A stretch of 64,000 bases of DNA, taken from positions 124,001 through 188,000 of the forward strand of contig NZ_ATVQ01000004.1 in NCBI RefSeq assembly GCF_000420805.1, written 5' to 3'. A model generated the notes under the pieces. The model ran no database searches, had not been told where the DNA came from, and worked only from the letters and a program-made list of their open reading frames with translations. This DNA comes from Yaniella halotolerans DSM 15476. GTDB taxonomy: Bacteria; Actinomycetota; Actinomycetes; Actinomycetales; Micrococcaceae. Position numbers and translations under genes: made by a program. Of the stretch, positions 6,844-51,470 are shown in pieces (positions within the stretch are counted from its first letter, which is position 1; each line of letters begins with the position of its first letter).

Positions 6844-8265
6844 TTAACTATGTGCTGCTTGTCGCGCCTTCGCGCGGGAGATTCGAACCTGTTCGTCACG
6901 GTCGACAACTTTCACACGCTCGCGCTCAACCGGACCCGACTGGGTTTCCAGTTCTCCGAGACTCATTTCGTGGTTGTCGAGTTCCTGCCAACCCTTCCAG
7001 TCAGAGTATTCCACTCCGCGCTGATCCAAGAGCTCAAGAATCGCTTGCTCATCGGGCTGCTCTGCAGTGTATAGATGCTCGACATCTTCGATAATGTGAC
7101 CGATGGTCTCGAGTGCATCGCCCTTGGTATGACCGATCAATCCAACCGGACCGCGCTTGATCCAACCGGATGTGTAGAGCCCTTGCACGGGTTTTCCGTC
7201 GGCGCCCAGAACACGGCCTTCTTCGTTTTTGATAATGCCGCGTTCTTCGTCGAATTGAATATCCGGCACAGCCGAACCGAAGTACCCGATGGCGCGGTAC
7301 ACCGCTTGCACCGGGTACATTTTCATTTCGCCAGTGCCTTGCACGTTTCCGGTGCCATCAAGTTCCATACGCTGCATACGAATGCCGGCCACCTTGCCCT
7401 GGTCTGTCAGAATTTCTTCTGGGGCTTCCAAGAAATGTATGTGGAGACGACGTGATGCGCCGGTGCCTTCCGGGTTATCGTCCTGTTCTAATAACCAGTT
7501 GGTCAAAGTGTTGACCATATTGCGGACCTGGTTGACTTCTTCGGCAGCTTTCTCGGAGGCCTCATCGAATTCAAAGTCGTCTTCGTACAACACGATGTCG
7601 ACGTCATCGGCAGATTTCAGCTCCCGCAGTTCAAGCGGGGTGAACTTCACCTGTGCTGGACCACGCCGGCCGAAAATATGAATATCCGTGGCTTGTGATG
7701 CTTTCAAACCGGCATAGACGTTGTCAGGAATCTCGGTTTCAAGCATCTGGCTGGCTGGTTTCGCCAGGACCCTGGCCACATCAAGTGCAACGTTGCCGTT
7801 ACCAATAACCGCAATTTCACGGGCAGATAGATCCCAGTCACGATCCACGTCGGGATGACCGTCGTACCAGGATACGAAGTCCGCTGCACCAAACGAGTTC
7901 TCTGCTTCGACACCGGGAATGTTGAGTCTGGCATCTTTGATCGCGCCGGTGGCAAACACGACAACGTCATAAAATCTGCGCAGTTCTTCGAGATGAATGT
8001 CGGTCCCGTATTCCACATTTCCGATGAAACGGATATCACCGCGGTCCATAACACGATGCAGTGCTTTAATGATGCCCTTAATTCGTGGGTGATCAGGCGC
8101 CACGCCATATCGAATCAGACCAAAAGGCGCAGGATAACGATCAAACAGATCGATCGAAACATCAAAGTCGATGTCTGCTTTCTGTAGTGAGTCAGCGGTA
8201 TATACACCAGCCGGACCGGCACCGATGATGGCTATCCGTAGTGGACGATGCATAGTTTCGGACAC
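6844..8265 (-). CDS. fprA: FprA-type ferredoxin/adrenodoxin-NADP+ reductase
   Basis: 473-residue cytoplasmic flavoenzyme that moves electrons between NADPH and ferredoxin. The FAD-binding IGAGPAGVYTADSL is near residues 14-27, with YGVAPDHPRIKGI near 52-64. The NADP-binding IGNGNVALDVARVLAKP is near 153-169. The C-terminal YTSGWIKRGPVGLIGHTKGDA is typical of the mycobacterial FprA and adrenodoxin reductase group. It starts at a GTG preceded by AAAGGGA five nt upstream. It is first in a probable operon with htpX and diverges from the gene at 8409. Confidence 0.94.
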   Translation of the reverse strand: MSETMHRPLRIAIIGAGPAGVYTADSLQKADIDFDVSIDLFDRYPAPFGLIRYGVAPDHPRIKGIIKALHRVMDRGDIRFIGNVEYGTDIHLEELRRFYDVVVFATGAIKDARLNIPGVEAENSFGAADFVSWYDGHPDVDRDWDLSAREIAVIGNGNVALDVARVLAKPASQMLETEIPDNVYAGLKASQATDIHIFGRRGPAQVKFTPLELRELKSADDVDIVLYEDDFEFDEASEKAAEEVNQVRNMVNTLTNWLLEQDDNPEGTGASRRLHIHFLEAPEEILTDQGKVAGIRMQRMELDGTGNVQGTGEMKMYPVQAVYRAIGYFGSAVPDIQFDEERGIIKNEEGRVLGADGKPVQGLYTSGWIKRGPVGLIGHTKGDALETIGHIIEDVEHLYTAEQPDEQAILELLDQRGVEYSDWKGWQELDNHEMSLGELETQSGPVERERVKVVDRDEQVRISRAKARQAAHS

Positions 8266-8408
8266 TAATTTCCCTTTGTTCTTGACTGCATAGAGTAGTT
8301 GCTATGGTAATTACGTAAACACCGTATCGCCTAATCCTGGCAGTCTGCTAGAAATTCAGCGGAAAGCAACAGTGAATGTGGATCTCAAGGGCGACTAGAC
8401 TAGTACCT

Positions 8409-9432: not shown

Positions 9433-10475
9433 GCGTTGCGGGACACCACATATAGTGCGAAATGTTTCAGCGCTGTTTTCACCGGTGAATCTGCCAGGCC
9501 ATCAAGTGCTGCAATTGCTTTATCAGCCCACTGCTCGGTCAGCTCCCAAGCTTGATCGATGACCTGGTGCGAAGCTACAGCTTGCACAGCCGCTTCGACT
9601 TGTACATCGGTATCTAATGGTCCGTCAACGAGTTCAAGCACGCGTGCGGCCTCGGTGTCACCTTCGGCAGCGGACTGACGCAACATCAAAATTGGCAGCG
9701 TCGGCACACGTTCTTTCAGGTCAGTGCCTTGTACTTTGCCTGTCGTGTCAGAGGTACTGGTGACATCAATGATGTCGTCGGCCAGTTGAAACGCCATGCC
9801 CACATTGCCGCCATAGGCCGCAGTGATCGCGATGAGTTCTTCCGAGCCACCGGCCATCAGCGCACCCAGCAGTGCACTCGTTGATAGCAGCGAGGCAGTT
9901 TTACCATCGATCACGCGTAGATAATGCTCGAGTGGATCATCGTCTGTTGCCGGTCCTACGGTTTCCCAGAGCTGGCCCAGGACCAGTTTCTCGAAGGTCT
10001 TGGCATGCTCTTGGACGGCTCGGGTGCCAAGAGCAGACATGACCGCTGAAGCTTTCGCAAAAATTAGGTCGCCCGCCAGGATTGCAATGGAGTTCGACCA
10101 CTGCTGGTGGGCCGCCGGCACACCACGACGTTGGTCGGCTTCGTCCATAACATCGTCGTGGTACAGCGTTGCCAGATGAGTCAGCTCCATGGCAACAGCT
10201 ACTTCGCGAACGCTGCTCGCTGGTTCAGCTACCTGTCCGGTCGTGACATTTTCGTCGGCAAGCATTGAAGCCAGCACAGCGACGATTGGGCGCACACGTT
10301 TACCACCGGCGTCTAAGAGATGACGCGTCGTATCTTGTGCAAGGTCGTCAGCATAGACCAGTGCGTCAGCTAATTCTTCTTCGATCTTAGCCAGGCTGGT
10401 CAATAGCGCCTCGAAAAGCTTCTCGTGCTTTTGTAGCGCGTCAATACCCGGAGGCAGCGAAATAGAAATATCCAC
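9429..10475 (-). CDS. Polyprenyl diphosphate synthase (menaquinone side chain likely)
   Basis: 348-residue trans-isoprenyl diphosphate synthase that condenses isopentenyl diphosphate onto an allylic primer. The first aspartate-rich motif is in YHDDVMDEADQRRG near residues 104-117 and the second in FQLADDIIDVTSTSD near 231-245. GGKRVRP near 58-64 binds isopentenyl diphosphate. Position beside menF, menD and menC suggests it makes the menaquinone tail (heptaprenyl or longer), although a general polyprenyl role is possible. It begins with GTG. The chain length cannot be read with confidence from the sequence. Confidence 0.9.
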   Translation of the reverse strand: MDISISLPPGIDALQKHEKLFEALLTSLAKIEEELADALVYADDLAQDTTRHLLDAGGKRVRPIVAVLASMLADENVTTGQVAEPASSVREVAVAMELTHLATLYHDDVMDEADQRRGVPAAHQQWSNSIAILAGDLIFAKASAVMSALGTRAVQEHAKTFEKLVLGQLWETVGPATDDDPLEHYLRVIDGKTASLLSTSALLGALMAGGSEELIAITAAYGGNVGMAFQLADDIIDVTSTSDTTGKVQGTDLKERVPTLPILMLRQSAAEGDTEAARVLELVDGPLDTDVQVEAAVQAVASHQVIDQAWELTEQWADKAIAALDGLADSPVKTALKHFALYVVSRNA

Positions 10476-10867
10476 CCGTATAACCCTACACTAGCGGCCC
10501 TGGCGGACCGCTGGAATCACAGACTCGACAACTTCAATTGTACGGTCACCAAACATACCCCCGGCGTTCTCTACACCGTTGGAGGTTACTGCCCAACACG
10601 GCAATTTTTCAGCTATCCGAACACCACGGTGCACCTGGTCCAGCCCCAAAATGAGCCACACCGCTCACCGTGGTGTGCGCTGTTTAGACTGAGAAACCGC
10701 ACGAGCCTGCCGTTTTTGCAACCATGCCCACAGTCTTGGTCTCCGAGGCCAGAAAATCGCTTGCCGTCGCATAGCGCATCCCTTCGTCACAAACTGCACC
10801 TTACGGTGATGTCTTCATTGTCCCACCACCGCGAGCAACCGCAAAAACCGGTACATTATTGCCTATC
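10476..10867. other. Long intergenic region with an 11-bp inverted repeat
   Basis: About 390 bp between the divergent prenyl synthase and menF genes. ACACCACGGTG (10621-10631) and CACCGTGGTGT (10666-10676) form a perfect inverted repeat around a 34-nt spacer. A minus-strand ATG at 10772, with GAAGGGA upstream, opens a 35-codon very basic reading frame ending at 10665. It is too short to call. No RNA gene or other convincing frame was seen; the stretch probably holds both promoters. Confidence 0.5.
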
Positions 10868-12148
10868 ATGTCTTTTACCGCCGCAGCTTTTTCACTGACT
10901 GACGCACAGTTGGCACAACTTCCTGATGGACTCATTGGCAAAGCCACGTGTGCGTTTGCACGCAACCGTCGCGGCAAGCTTGGTTTCGGCGAGCGCTACC
11001 GCTTCACGACTTCGGGCCCCCAGCGCTTTGCACAGGCACGAGACCGTTGGTCTGAGCTGACGGCCTCTGCAGCAACTTCCCTACACCAAGACCTGACAGC
11101 AAGCTCCCCGCTATGCTTTGCGGCGTTTACCTTTGATGCACGGTCCGCTGTGGAATCGCTGATGGTCGTCCCGAAGTTTGTACTCGATAGGACAGCTGAA
11201 GCCGTTCGCCTGGCATATATCTACGAGGCGACAGAGCAAGCACCGGATACGAGCACTCTCTTCCAGATGTTCCTTGCTGAGTTACCCGAAGAATCCGGTA
11301 ATAACATCCCGGCTACGTTCTGCAACGATGCCGCATACATGTCTGAGGACGACTTCCAGCAGGTTGTCGGTGAGGCAGTTCAACGCATCAACCAAGAAGA
11401 GTTCTCCAAAGTAGTATTGGCACGCGATGAGCGCGTGCATGCTCCTGCAGGATTCCATATTCCCGCGACCATGCGCGCGTTGGCCAACGATAATCCCACC
11501 GCGTGGACCTATAAAGTGGGTCCGCTGATCGGTTCAACACCAGAGTTACTTATCGCACGCAAAGACAACGATGCCAAGGCTCGGGTGCTTGCCGGAACCG
11601 TTGACCGAAACGTCGCAGTCAATGACGATCTGATAGCTGAGCAGCTTTCTAAGAACCCCAAACAGATTTTCGAACACCAAGCTGCTGTTGACTCGCTGGT
11701 CGAAAAACTCTCACCGTTTGCCACAGCGCTACATGTTTCTGCCAAGCCCTTCGTCTTGTCACTGCCAAACGTATATCACCTTGCAACGGATGTCTCAGCA
11801 GAGCTGACCGCTTCAACCTCCGTGCTAGACCTTGTGGCGGAGATCAATCCTACGGCTGCGGTAGGCGGTACCCCCAGACGCGCAGCACTCGATGCGATCT
11901 GGCAATTAGAAGCCGAACAACACGGTATGGACCGCGGATTATATGCCGGTGCTGTGGGCTGGTTGAACGCAAGCGGTCACGGCGAATTTGGAATTGCCTT
12001 GCGTGGCAGCGTGATTGAAGACGAACACCACGTTCGCATTTACGCGGGCTGTGGCATCGTCGATGGTTCGGATGCTGCCGCCGAATTAGCCGAAACCAAC
12101 GCAAAAATGCGTCCCATGAAAAAAGCGCTGCGCATGTCCGCGAACTAA
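10868..12148 (+). CDS. menF: Isochorismate synthase MenF
   Basis: Converts chorismate to isochorismate, the first step of menaquinone synthesis. The 426 residues carry the chorismate-binding signatures in order: FSKVVLARDERV near 177-188, TPELLIARK, AGTVDRN, INPTAAVGGTPRRAAL near 323-338, and the C-terminal IYAGCGIVDGSDAAAELAETNAKM. The ATG at 10868 is preferred over the TTG at 10859. The nearby prenyl synthase, MenD and MenC favour a menaquinone role over siderophore synthesis, although an isochorismate synthase for a catecholate cannot be fully excluded. Confidence 0.92.
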   Translation: MSFTAAAFSLTDAQLAQLPDGLIGKATCAFARNRRGKLGFGERYRFTTSGPQRFAQARDRWSELTASAATSLHQDLTASSPLCFAAFTFDARSAVESLMVVPKFVLDRTAEAVRLAYIYEATEQAPDTSTLFQMFLAELPEESGNNIPATFCNDAAYMSEDDFQQVVGEAVQRINQEEFSKVVLARDERVHAPAGFHIPATMRALANDNPTAWTYKVGPLIGSTPELLIARKDNDAKARVLAGTVDRNVAVNDDLIAEQLSKNPKQIFEHQAAVDSLVEKLSPFATALHVSAKPFVLSLPNVYHLATDVSAELTASTSVLDLVAEINPTAAVGGTPRRAALDAIWQLEAEQHGMDRGLYAGAVGWLNASGHGEFGIALRGSVIEDEHHVRIYAGCGIVDGSDAAAELAETNAKMRPMKKALRMSAN

Positions 12149-48724: not shown

Positions 48725-49402
48725 GTGGCAAGAAAGCGCCGAGCCAAAGACTACGAGGACCATCAATCGATTCGGCCCATGCCGAAGAAAAGAACAGATC
48801 GTCCACGTTTGACTGTTGCCCAGGCGAAGGAGGACATCCAACAAGCCGGTCGGCAAGAAGGCAGTCCGGGCATGTTAGTGCTCGCCGTCCTCGCAGTCAC
48901 GTTGTTCATCGGCTTTTATTACCACATTCTGGCGCTTCAAGGCATGCAGCAACTCACCGGTGGGACGCCTATGCTCGACCATCATGTTTCTGGTTTCACG
49001 ATCACAGACGTCGAACACCTTGCCGAACGCATGGATGACGACGCGTTGGGCCAGTACAACTGGGTGCACATCACCGCCGGTCGAATCTTTCCGGTCATGC
49101 TTGGCCTCAGCGTGATATCGGTGGGTTTGTGGACATTACGCACCAAACTCGCCAAATGGGGTGCTGTAGCGGCAGCTGTGATCTACGCCGGTTTGGAAAT
49201 CTGGGCCTCGATCACTAGAGAAGCTGTACTGCAAGACATAACCGAGGCAAATACTTCGCTTGCCTCTACACTGACCGTATTGCAATGGCTTGTCTTTGCT
49301 TTCCTGATCATCTGGATCGTAGCCATGCTGGTGCTGAAATTTATTGGTCGAAATAACCCTGGCCTTGCGACATCAATGGATCCAGAGCGCGAGATCCCCT
49401 AG
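48725..49402 (+). CDS. Four-helix membrane protein of unknown function
   Basis: 225 residues. A strongly basic, polar N-terminal tail (about 1-45) precedes four hydrophobic segments near 50-72, 120-137, 144-161 and 180-206. The first loop between helices (about 73-115) is acidic (DVEHLAERMDDDALGQ). No catalytic motif is seen and I do not recognise the family. A GTG with CACCGGAGG just upstream is the start; the ATG four bases earlier is in another frame. It stands alone upstream of tRNA-Arg. Confidence 0.7.
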   Translation: MARKRRAKDYEDHQSIRPMPKKRTDRPRLTVAQAKEDIQQAGRQEGSPGMLVLAVLAVTLFIGFYYHILALQGMQQLTGGTPMLDHHVSGFTITDVEHLAERMDDDALGQYNWVHITAGRIFPVMLGLSVISVGLWTLRTKLAKWGAVAAAVIYAGLEIWASITREAVLQDITEANTSLASTLTVLQWLVFAFLIIWIVAMLVLKFIGRNNPGLATSMDPEREIP

Positions 49403-49428: not shown

Positions 49429-49502
49429 GCCTCCGTAGCTCAGTTGGATAGAGCATCCCTCTCCTAAAGGGAAGGTCGCACGTTCGAATCGTGTCGGGGG
49501 CA
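49429..49502 (+). tRNA. tRNA-Arg (CCU)
   Basis: GCCTCCG at the 5' end pairs with CGGGGGC (49495-49501). The anticodon stem ATCCCT and AGGGAA encloses CTCCTAA, giving anticodon CCU. T-loop CGTTCGAATCG is canonical. The 3' CCA is not fully encoded (CCG follows). The 3' half, starting at the anticodon, is duplicated about 1.26 kb downstream, so this gene looks like an integration site. Confidence 0.96.
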
Positions 49503-49504
49503 CC
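49463..49504 (+). repeat. Direct repeat copy 1 (tRNA-Arg 3' half)
   Basis: Starts at the anticodon CCT and ends at the tRNA 3' end CACC. It is the parental copy, a standard crossover target for tyrosine recombinases. Confidence 0.85.
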
Positions 49505-49687
49505 GCTCAACTAAGAGACATTCACGCATTCTTCTGCTGCCGGTCTTTTCTTAGCTCTCCCGAAACTACTCGGAGACAATTCAAGATGGCATGCAAGTTG
49601 CTTGACTGCCTTTTCCACATCTAGGCCACACAACAATCCAAGACCCCGGCACGTTAAAACCGAGGCCTCGCAAAAAGTTGGCAATTC

Positions 49688-49960
49688 CTATGGAATATCA
49701 GTAAGTGTTTTCTCCACTCCTGCTATCCGTCGCTCGATTTCAGTAAGGCGGTCCGCCATCGCCTGCTGTGACTTTGCATTCTCGATCAGCGTCTGTCGAA
49801 TATCGCGAACATCACTCACCTTGACATGGTTCGCACCGATTTCTTGCTGCTTGGCGGTGAAGTACTTTCTAACAATCACCACTACGGCAGCAACAACTCC
49901 TGACGCTAACAGCAGGCCAACAGCAATCATCACAATCGGTATAAAAATATCTGGATTCAT
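49688..49960 (-). CDS. Small membrane-anchored coiled-coil protein
   Basis: 90 residues. One N-terminal membrane helix (about 7-32, VMIAVGLLLASGVVAAVVVIV) is followed by a basic stop-transfer residue and a helical, heptad-like polar part (about 40-88, with RDIRQTLIENAKSQQ and LTEIERRIAGVEKTL). The ATG overlaps the stop of the helix-turn-helix gene upstream by 4 nt, so both products are made together. No family is recognised; it could be a membrane partner or sensor for the regulator. Confidence 0.7.
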   Translation of the reverse strand: MNPDIFIPIVMIAVGLLLASGVVAAVVVIVRKYFTAKQQEIGANHVKVSDVRDIRQTLIENAKSQQAMADRLTEIERRIAGVEKTLTDIP

Positions 49961-50268
49961 GAAGCCCCCTCTTCATTGTCTAAAGCTTGAAAAGTTTCAA
50001 CAGCTTGTCGAATAGTTTCCTGGTTGACGATGAGATGAAAATCCTCAACTCGTAACTGACGCATCGCCTTACCCTCGTCGGACAACAACAGCTCACTAGA
50101 AATGAACCCTGCCTCTTCGAGCTTCTTCGTGTGCATGTAAAGCAATGCCCGTGACATCCCCACCCGCCTAGCCAGCTCGCTCACATGAAGCGGTTCATGC
50201 GCCAGCTCCGCAATGATCCGCATCCTCTGAGGGCTGGCAACAGCCGTCAACTGTGCACTCAGATCCAA
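49957..50268 (-). CDS. ArsR-like winged-helix regulator
   Basis: 103 residues with a winged helix-turn-helix: ASPQRMRIIAELAHEPLHV and SELARRVGMSRALLYMHTKKLEEAGFI, near residues 11-56. No Cys metal site typical of metal-sensing ArsR proteins is present, so a non-metal signal is likely. The TTG start has GGGAGG seven nt upstream. A near-perfect palindrome overlaps its promoter. The next gene, a membrane protein, is coupled by a 4-nt overlap. It lies inside the tRNA-Arg mini-island. Confidence 0.85.
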   Translation of the reverse strand: MDLSAQLTAVASPQRMRIIAELAHEPLHVSELARRVGMSRALLYMHTKKLEEAGFISSELLLSDEGKAMRQLRVEDFHLIVNQETIRQAVETFQALDNEEGAS

Positions 50269-50283
50269 GTTCCACCTCCCATG

Positions 50284-50301
50284 TGTAAGTTTATACTAAC
50301 A
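50284..50301. promoter_or_regulatory. Operator-like palindrome upstream of the ArsR-like gene
   Basis: TGTAAGT (50284-50290) and ACTAACA (50295-50301) form an inverted repeat with six of seven pairs matching around TTAT. It lies 16-33 bp before the start codon and overlaps a TATAAA-like stretch on the minus strand, the usual place for an autorepressor site. Function is inferred. Confidence 0.5.
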
Positions 50302-50470
50302 GATGGAATATATGAATTTCGAAACTCGTTATTGCCATCCGCAACGAAGCGCTCCACCTAGACCCTCACCTGAGCAGTCACAGACGAAAGAGGTCGAGCT
50401 CAGCATCCGAGACGGGCATACCCGGCTTGAATGCCTGTATTAGTCCACCGATAAAAAGTAGGGTTTCTAC

Positions 50471-50701
50471 ATGCCTAAACTCCCCGTAGAAATTGAAGCA
50501 ACAGATCACATCGAAGCCAGACAAATCGAGGCAATCTACCAACGGGGCGAAAGACATCAGGTTTTAGAGGACGAAGTTACGGAGGCAGTATGGAGCAAAG
50601 GATGGACACCCGTTGGGAAACCGATCTTTATCGGTTTAAGTAATGGCGCACCAGTGCTCTACCGATTTGAGGTGCCAGTGGAAACCAGCATCGGCGGATA
50701 G
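50471..50701 (+). CDS. Unknown 76-residue protein in the mini-island
   Basis: Small soluble acidic protein beginning MPKLPVEIEATDHIEARQIEA, with a central VLEDEVTEAVWSKGW and a C-terminal beta-like VLYRFEVPVETSIGG. A weak AGGG site lies about eight nt upstream. It ends 20 bp before the second tRNA repeat. No family is recognised. It could be cargo of the island or a remnant. Confidence 0.5.
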   Translation: MPKLPVEIEATDHIEARQIEAIYQRGERHQVLEDEVTEAVWSKGWTPVGKPIFIGLSNGAPVLYRFEVPVETSIGG

Positions 50702-50720
50702 CAACGTCCTCCATGCGATT

Positions 50721-50762
50721 CCTACAGAGAAGGTCGCACGTTCGAATCGTGTCGGGGACACC
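50721..50762 (+). repeat. Direct repeat copy 2 (att-like)
   Basis: Matches the copy at 49463-49504 at 39 of 42 positions; GAAGGTCGCACGTTCG begins the best-conserved part. It has no 5' tRNA half and is not a functional tRNA. It probably marks the far end of an integrated segment. Confidence 0.8.
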
Positions 50763-50951: not shown

Positions 50952-51470
50952 ATGACTGACAACTACGCAGATTACACCACCCCCGGCATGGATTTCGAAG
51001 ACAGCCACCGCATCACCGATATCTTGCAGGTACGTCTCCATGCCCTTAATGACCTACACCTTACGCTCAAACACGCCCACTGGAACGTGGTCGGACCGGA
51101 CTTCATTTCTGTTCATGAGATGCTCGATCCACAGGTAAATGAAGTTCGTGCATGGGCCGACCTGGTCGCTGAACGCATCGCGACCATGGGTGCGTCTCCC
51201 AAAGGCACCCCCGGATCGATCGTCACCGGCCGCACGTGGGAAGACTACGCAATCAATCGCGGCTCGACCTTAGCGCATATCTCGGCACTGAACGACGTCT
51301 ACACCGGCGTCATCCAGGACTTCCGCAATGCCATAGCCGAAACCGGCAAGGCGGACCCGATGACCGAAGATATTCTTGTTGAGATCACCCGCGGGCTTGA
51401 ACTGTTCCAGTGGTTCCTGCGCTCATTTATCACCAAGTCGGACGGCACACTCAACCCAGTGTCTGAGTAA
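50952..51470 (+). CDS. dps: Dps-family DNA-binding ferritin
   Basis: 172 residues. Stores iron and protects DNA against peroxide as a dodecamer. The ferroxidase residues are in LKHAHWNVVGPDF near 38-50 and HEMLDPQVNEVRAWADLVAERIATMG near 54-79. ATG 50952 is preceded by AAAGG; the longer frame from 50895 is not supported. The iron box upstream and a strong terminator after it suggest a single-gene unit. It lies just past the tRNA-Arg mini-island. Confidence 0.93.
   Translation: MTDNYADYTTPGMDFEDSHRITDILQVRLHALNDLHLTLKHAHWNVVGPDFISVHEMLDPQVNEVRAWADLVAERIATMGASPKGTPGSIVTGRTWEDYAINRGSTLAHISALNDVYTGVIQDFRNAIAETGKADPMTEDILVEITRGLELFQWFLRSFITKSDGTLNPVSE

What the first reader, a model, noticed from the sequence alone, without database searches (positions are those of the whole stretch)
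49463..50762. A ~1.2-kb mini-island lies between tRNA-Arg and a duplicated tRNA 3' half, without an integrase
The anticodon-to-end half of tRNA-Arg(CCU) is repeated at 50721-50762 with three mismatches in 42 nt, exactly the segment tyrosine recombinases use. The enclosed DNA carries three small genes and no recombinase. It may be a decayed element or a non-autonomous satellite moved by an integrase from elsewhere. The three cargo genes are therefore candidates for an unrecognised small accessory module.
Basis: partly seen in the sequence, partly recalled or inferred. Interest (0 to 1): 0.7.

Follow-up and report, generated by a model that had tools for sequence, protein, structure and literature searches.

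The report
Tiny integrase-less island behind tRNA-Arg
A 1.26-kb piece of apparently foreign DNA sits between a tRNA gene and a copy of the tRNA's end in one bacterium, is missing at that place from its closest sequenced relatives, has no integrase of its own, and carries a small repressor gene paired with a membrane-protein gene, a pairing that recurs in many bacteria and whose membrane half matches no named family we searched.

Summary
tRNA-Arg(CCU) (49429-49504) and a 43-nt copy of its 3' end (50720-50762, 40/43 identical, same orientation) bracket 1,215 bp. Of eight same-genus genomes, five (the two closest included) have an empty site; the window's joined flanks match the closest one at 456 of 510 aligned bases without a scar. 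The insert is AT-rich and no integrase was found in it; the assembly's only two tyrosine recombinases are XerD and a XerC-like protein, and there is no third close copy of the repeat. So it is an immobile remnant, or a passenger of an integrase no longer seen. Both repeat copies carry a 3' half found in only 2 of 295 family genomes, so the site was probably used or converted more than once. Cargo: a winged-helix repressor gene overlapping by 4 nt a one-span membrane coiled-coil gene, plus a 76-aa orphan. The first two are a recurrent pair: 69 of 82 fetched repressor relatives have the partner just downstream, against 0 of 2701 control gene ends. The pair is not tied to tRNA islands, and the third gene occurs separately. 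Verdict: a real, very small tRNA island, probably decayed, carrying an unnamed regulatory pair; moderate interest.

The parts
49429..49504 (+). tRNA-Arg(CCU), intact; insertion target. Its T-stem is CACG/CGTG instead of the CTGG/CCAG of the closest relatives
49462..49504 (+). direct repeat 1: anticodon-to-3'-end part of the tRNA
49505..50719 (.). inserted DNA between the repeats, 1215 bp, G+C 49.5% against 55.8% for the window
49688..49960 (-). 90-aa protein: one N-terminal hydrophobic span, then a charged, coiled-coil-like part ending in VEKTLTDIP; partner of the wHTH gene
49957..50268 (-). 103-aa ArsR-like winged-helix DNA-binding protein (PF01022), TTG start as listed, no cysteine; overlaps its partner by 4 nt
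50471..50701 (+). 76-aa protein of a small family without library match, with relatives in the same family and in other families of the order
50720..50762 (+). direct repeat 2: displaced tRNA 3' part, 40/43 identical, directly joined to the flank found at the empty site
48725..49402 (+). left flanking gene (225 aa, no Pfam family above cut-off), before the tRNA in all 8 relatives
50952..51470 (+). right flanking gene dps (ferritin-like; start chosen by relatives), next gene after the tRNA at the 5 empty sites

Best explanation
A small remnant of an element that entered tRNA-Arg(CCU) by tyrosine-integrase recombination. The incoming DNA brought a tRNA 3' part that rebuilt the gene and pushed the resident 3' part to the far end (50720-50762). 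The integrase and most of the element were later lost by internal deletion, leaving 1.2 kb that cannot move by itself. It was probably kept because it carries a working two-gene unit: a winged-helix autorepressor co-translated with a one-span membrane coiled-coil protein, which I infer binds or tethers the repressor at the membrane and so frees its target promoters on an envelope signal. Shown: insertion, precise ends, empty sites, no integrase found, recurrence of the gene pair. Inferred: integrase catalysis, deletion, autorepression and membrane tethering.
For: Precise ends on the tRNA 3' part and empty sites in 5 of 8 same-genus genomes; joined flanks match G002 at 456 and G008 at 453 of 510 aligned bases, no scar at the junction. 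The repeats differ at 3 of 43 positions while the right intergenic DNA differs from G002 at 25 and from G008 at 28 of 188, which fits an insertion after that split, though one repeat is a constrained tRNA. G+C is as low in only 0.5% of sliding 1215-bp stretches of the window. The 34-nt 3' half within 2 mismatches is in 2 of 295 family genomes, the window's own and G004: it looks imported. No integrase model matches the island's frames; the only PF00589 proteins of the assembly are XerD and XerC-like. 0 of the 8 other same-genus genomes (one 71% complete) have the wHTH gene at E 1e-10. Pair: 69 of 82 loci against 0 of 2701 control ends; in 42 of the 69 the genes overlap by 1 or 4 nt.
Against: A single integration should leave the resident T-stem in one copy, but both copies are CACG/CGTG while G001, G002, G006 and G008 have CTGG/CCAG, which suggests that type was ancestral; an earlier element, a double event or gene conversion must be added. 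No trace of an integrase gene was seen, so loss by deletion is not shown. No larger version of the island was found. The membrane-tethering step rests on gene pairing and topology only.
Confidence: 0.55

Rival explanations
1. A non-autonomous mini-element that entered without an integrase gene, using an integrase supplied by a phage or island in the donor or recipient, as hitchhiking elements do.
For: Only 1.26 kb with precise ends and no integrase match; three open frames cover 812 of its 1215 bp. A viral contig with a PF00589 integrase gene 13 bp from a 43-nt tRNA-Arg 3' half, 42/43 identical, shows that such attP-like sites exist, though its other genes look proteobacterial to me.
Against: Only one copy is known: apart from the window's own, 0 of 294 family genomes have two copies of the half. 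No helper att copy in the genome now. Mobilisation or packaging signals were not searched for.
Confidence: 0.2
2. Composite of several events at a busy site: an earlier element replaced the tRNA 3' end and left by homologous recombination in the 3' part, and a second insertion or RecA-type exchange between tRNA 3' parts brought the present genes.
For: Both copies have the rare 3' half; G004 has the same tRNA 76/76 with other DNA behind it, a transposase-like frame (my reading) and a worn tRNA-3'-like stretch (27/43) upstream of dps; G005 holds an unrelated gene in the same gap.
Against: G004 is broken by contig ends just there; the 27/43 match is weak; more events than the data force.
Confidence: 0.2
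3. Repeat 2 is an old tRNA relic or chance, and the three genes are ordinary intergenic genes lost in relatives.
For: The gap is variable in the genus.
Against: Repeat 2 is absent in the 6 relatives whose gap is complete, 5 empty ones and G005; the junction is exact; chance is excluded.
Confidence: 0.03

Closest known systems
tRNA-targeted genomic islands (Islander, PMC4383910: passages and section 4 read)
   Same: Rebuilt tRNA gene and displaced 3' fragment in the same orientation mark both ends
   Different: Islander keeps only candidates with an integrase frame and of at least 2 kb; this has neither and would be filtered out
Integrase-less hitchhiking islands and phage satellites (PMC11389934, start of abstract seen in a listing)
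   Same: No own mobility gene found, site of foreign integrases
   Different: No helper seen; single copy; packaging or transfer signals not searched
SdpR-SdpI of Bacillus subtilis (PMC6818787, passages read; sequestration of SdpR at the membrane is recalled)
   Same: Two-gene operon of an ArsR-type repressor (type recalled) and a membrane protein
   Different: SdpI is a multi-span immunity protein (recalled); here the partner has one span plus a coiled-coil-like tail. SdpR-family model 20.6 bits against a cut-off of 100
PspB, phage shock protein B (PF06667, TIGR02976)
   Same: Membrane span followed by a coiled coil, about 75 aa (recalled); weak Pfam hits in 3 of 10 partner relatives and a weak NCBIfam hit in 1 of 8
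   Different: Best 19.5 bits against 25.6 and 23.5 against 51.7; paired with a wHTH gene

Membership tests
tRNA-targeted genomic island (Islander rules) | intact tRNA gene plus fragment of its end, same orientation, 3' fragment downstream | tested here: met
tRNA-targeted genomic island (general, not an Islander rule) | empty site in relatives, restored by joining the flanks | tested here: met
   5 of 8 relatives
tRNA-targeted genomic island (Islander rules) | integrase frame within or overlapping the island | tested here: not met
tRNA-targeted genomic island (Islander rules) | length of 2 kb or more | tested here: not met
   1258 bp start to start; rule
Phage satellite or hitchhiking element | helper-dependent packaging, transfer or excision | not testable with these tools
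   needs an experiment; no helper att copy in the genome
ArsR-type winged-helix regulators (PF01022) | domain above gathering score | tested here: met
   40.3 bits against 22; solved ArsR relatives
ArsR/SmtB metalloregulators | NCBIfam NF033788 cut-off; metal-binding cysteines | tested here: not met
   39.9 bits against 55; no cysteine; other metal ligands not excluded
SdpR-SdpI | SdpR model cut-off; multi-span SdpI partner | tested here: not met
   20.6 bits against 100; partner has one hydrophobic stretch
PspB | PF06667 or TIGR02976 cut-off | tested here: not met
   no hit for the window protein; relatives at most 19.5 against 25.6 and 23.5 against 51.7
known anti-phage defence proteins (PADLOC) | match of a whole-protein model | tested here: not met
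   the wHTH matches parts of Csa3, CasR, CARF and PRTase models, best E 5.3e-10; the membrane protein one weak hit (E 0.021); the 76-aa protein none

The most novel reading that the evidence does not exclude
The wHTH plus one-span coiled-coil pair is an undescribed, self-contained membrane-to-DNA switch that spreads as a two-gene cassette, landing between unrelated housekeeping genes, on plasmids, and here inside a minimal tRNA island that moves only with borrowed integrases.
Probability: 0.2. Interest if true: 0.6.

Novelty: new member of a known kind. Interest (0 to 1): 0.38.

Why it matters
Islands this small and without integrase are removed by a standard finder (size and integrase filters), so their number may be underestimated; this one has clean ends and empty sites. 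Its cargo points to a two-gene regulatory unit whose membrane half passes no Pfam cut-off (window protein and 10 relatives) and no NCBIfam cut-off (window protein and 8 relatives). It was fetched mainly from Actinomycetota, with some Bacillota, two Pseudomonadota and one Acidobacteriota record, and can be tested in laboratory strains.

Tried and rejected
Satellite with resident helper: no such helper seen in this genome. Old tRNA relic: rejected. Phage or plasmid origin by DNA similarity: 120 phage records match, none over 80% of the query; the 20 listed match the 76-nt tRNA only. With the second repeat alone, 4 phage and 2 plasmid records, none over 80%. 76-aa protein: no match in plasmids, phages or viral contigs, PHROGs or PADLOC, and nothing under E 0.18 among solved structures. 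Pair as a tRNA-island marker: rejected; 3 tRNA genes in 82 loci, none with a repeat of its end. Defence function: for the repressor only parts of models that carry a winged helix. Rfam: only the tRNA above a gathering score. Promoter and terminator scans gave no clear excess over shuffles. The repressor tree has few columns and long branches; I use it for no claim. Literature: two searches aimed at the pair gave 0 papers and 2 papers that do not name it in title or abstract start; some searches were on SdpR and on islands. Only open-licence papers are held.

Full report
Observation. tRNA-Arg(CCU) lies at 49429-49504 +. A 43-nt direct copy of its 3' part lies at 50720-50762, 40/43 identical, start-to-start distance 1258. 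The best other ungapped match in the window is 24/43. The DNA between (1215 bp) has G+C 49.5% against 55.8% for the window; 0.5% of sliding stretches of that size are as low. Three reading frames cover 812 bp of it: 49688-49960 -, 49957-50268 -, 50471-50701 +.

Empty sites. The same-genus search held 8 other genomes. With flanks fetched, pcrA and the 225-aa gene precede the tRNA in all 8. In G001, G002, G003, G006 and G008 (5 of 8) the tRNA is followed directly by the intergenic DNA of dps, without island or second repeat. G005 has about 1.4 kb with an unrelated 324-aa frame that looks like a serine/threonine kinase (my reading, no family search) and no repeat. G004 ends on its contig shortly after the tRNA; its dps lies on another contig behind other genes. 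G007 (71% complete) ends inside the tRNA. Joined window flanks match G002 at 456 and G008 at 453 of 510 aligned bases, 26 gap columns each, nearly all end overhang, with no scar at the junction.

History of the site. The tRNA and repeat 2 both have a CACG/CGTG T-stem; G001, G002, G006 and G008 have CTGG/CCAG, G003 and G005 a third type. The 34-nt half within 2 mismatches is in 2 of 295 family genomes: the window's (two copies) and G004 (one); G004's tRNA is identical over 76 nt. One clean integration should leave the resident type in one copy, so at least one more event (earlier element, second insertion or conversion) is needed. This speaks against the simplest story and for a reused site. 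A tRNA-like 27/43 stretch upstream of dps in G004 fits a worn second repeat but is weak.

Mobility now. PF00589 finds two proteins in the assembly. One passes the NCBIfam XerD cut-off (341.3 against 329.6); the other is best matched by XerC but below its cut-off (309.9 against 335.15). The assembly has no third close copy of the half. So nothing seen in this genome could move the unit; serine integrases were not searched for. One viral contig has the half at 42/43 with a PF00589 integrase gene 13 bp away; its other genes look proteobacterial to me, so I take it as an example of such a site, not as the source. Under published rules the unit is not an Islander island: no integrase and under 2 kb.

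Cargo pair. The 103-aa protein has an ArsR-type winged helix (PF01022, 40.3 bits against 22) but misses the metalloregulator cut-off and has no cysteine. Its gene overlaps by 4 nt that of a 90-aa protein with one strongly hydrophobic stretch from residue 12 and none after residue 40. In the family, 9 of 395 genomes have the repressor at E 1e-10 (own included; none of the 8 other genus members), and 6 of 295 the partner at E 0.01 (own included), of which G230 and G246 have it next to the repressor; the other three are not shown to be real. Plasmid relatives: 9 records; I opened 6, all with a small frame downstream, one of these not annotated. A genome scan found 389 stretches encoding relatives; the best 80 were kept, plus 2 viral loci. 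With a rule written after the first 12 partners (length, hydrophobic span, E-x-x-hydrophobic tail), 69 of 82 loci have the partner just downstream, 67 of the 69 within 20 nt and 42 with an overlap of 1 or 4 nt. The same rule fits 0 of 2701 other gene ends in these loci. Of the 13 misses, 4 (L102, L147, L158, L170) show a partner that the rule rejects, 3 (L107, L126, L146) one that seems frame-shifted, and 6 (L108, L136, L141, L159, L167, L176) none downstream, 4 of these (all but L136 and L167) near the end of the held DNA (by eye).

Where the pair lives. Of 82 loci 3 hold a tRNA gene, none with a repeat of its end. In 21 loci an MnmA-like gene follows (Pfam-checked in L097 only, with an aminotransferase class V gene before and DNA ligase after). 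In L100 the pair lies between GcpE and a tRNA synthetase gene; in L160 a 'Sensor' domain gene follows, in L152 an MMPL gene. So in the loci I checked the neighbours differ. The partner passes no Pfam cut-off (window protein and 10 relatives) and no NCBIfam cut-off (window protein and 8 relatives); PspB is among the weak hits.

Third gene. Relatives of the 76-aa protein are in 7 of 295 family genomes, 5 of these of the genus, own included, and in 9 of 396 of the order sample, own included, at scattered places. Against five genus loci the DNA similarity stops at the gene borders; a copy in G006 is split. In the loci fetched around them the pair was not found; one distant winged-helix match lies in L053.

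Mechanism. Shown: precise insertion, no integrase found, recurrent co-directional pair. Inferred: integrase-driven entry from the tRNA-end geometry; loss of the integrase; autorepression; tethering of the repressor by the membrane partner through its coiled coil. The SdpR-SdpI comparison is an analogy in working only; membership was tested and not met.

Novelty and scores. The island is a small, probably decayed member of a known kind. The pair is the part worth following; the two literature searches aimed at it found nothing on it in an open-licence library.

Noticed in passing
L031 (G004) 10001-10373 and L086 6600-9000: G004 has the identical rare tRNA-Arg 3' end, then different DNA; on the dps side lie a transposase-like frame and MerR-like and DUF4260-like genes: another change in the same gap (names are my reading).
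   Followed up: partly
L032 (G005) 10001-11460: A 324-aa kinase-like reading frame sits alone in the same tRNA-Arg to dps gap, without tRNA repeat.
   Followed up: partly
L036 2090-3217: Viral contig with a 43-nt tRNA-Arg 3' half (42/43 to the window) 13 bp from a 356-aa PF00589 integrase frame and no full tRNA; perhaps attP.
   Followed up: partly
L097, L096, L110 and 18 more loci: The wHTH plus membrane pair sits before an mnmA-like gene in 21 of 82 loci, apparently a stable chromosomal place in several Microbacteriaceae.
   Followed up: partly
L051 9138-9361: Copy of the 76-aa gene in G006 that is split into two frames; another copy in one frame lies on another contig (L050).
   Followed up: no
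L092 1-8261: On a Paenisporosarcina plasmid the pair lies within a few kb of genes annotated as Hachiman HamA and a Pycsar effector.
   Followed up: no
L081, L082, L083, L085 near 7400-8400: In some family members the order seems reversed, membrane gene first, between a phosphoglycerate-mutase-like and a PhoU-like gene (names are my reading).
   Followed up: no
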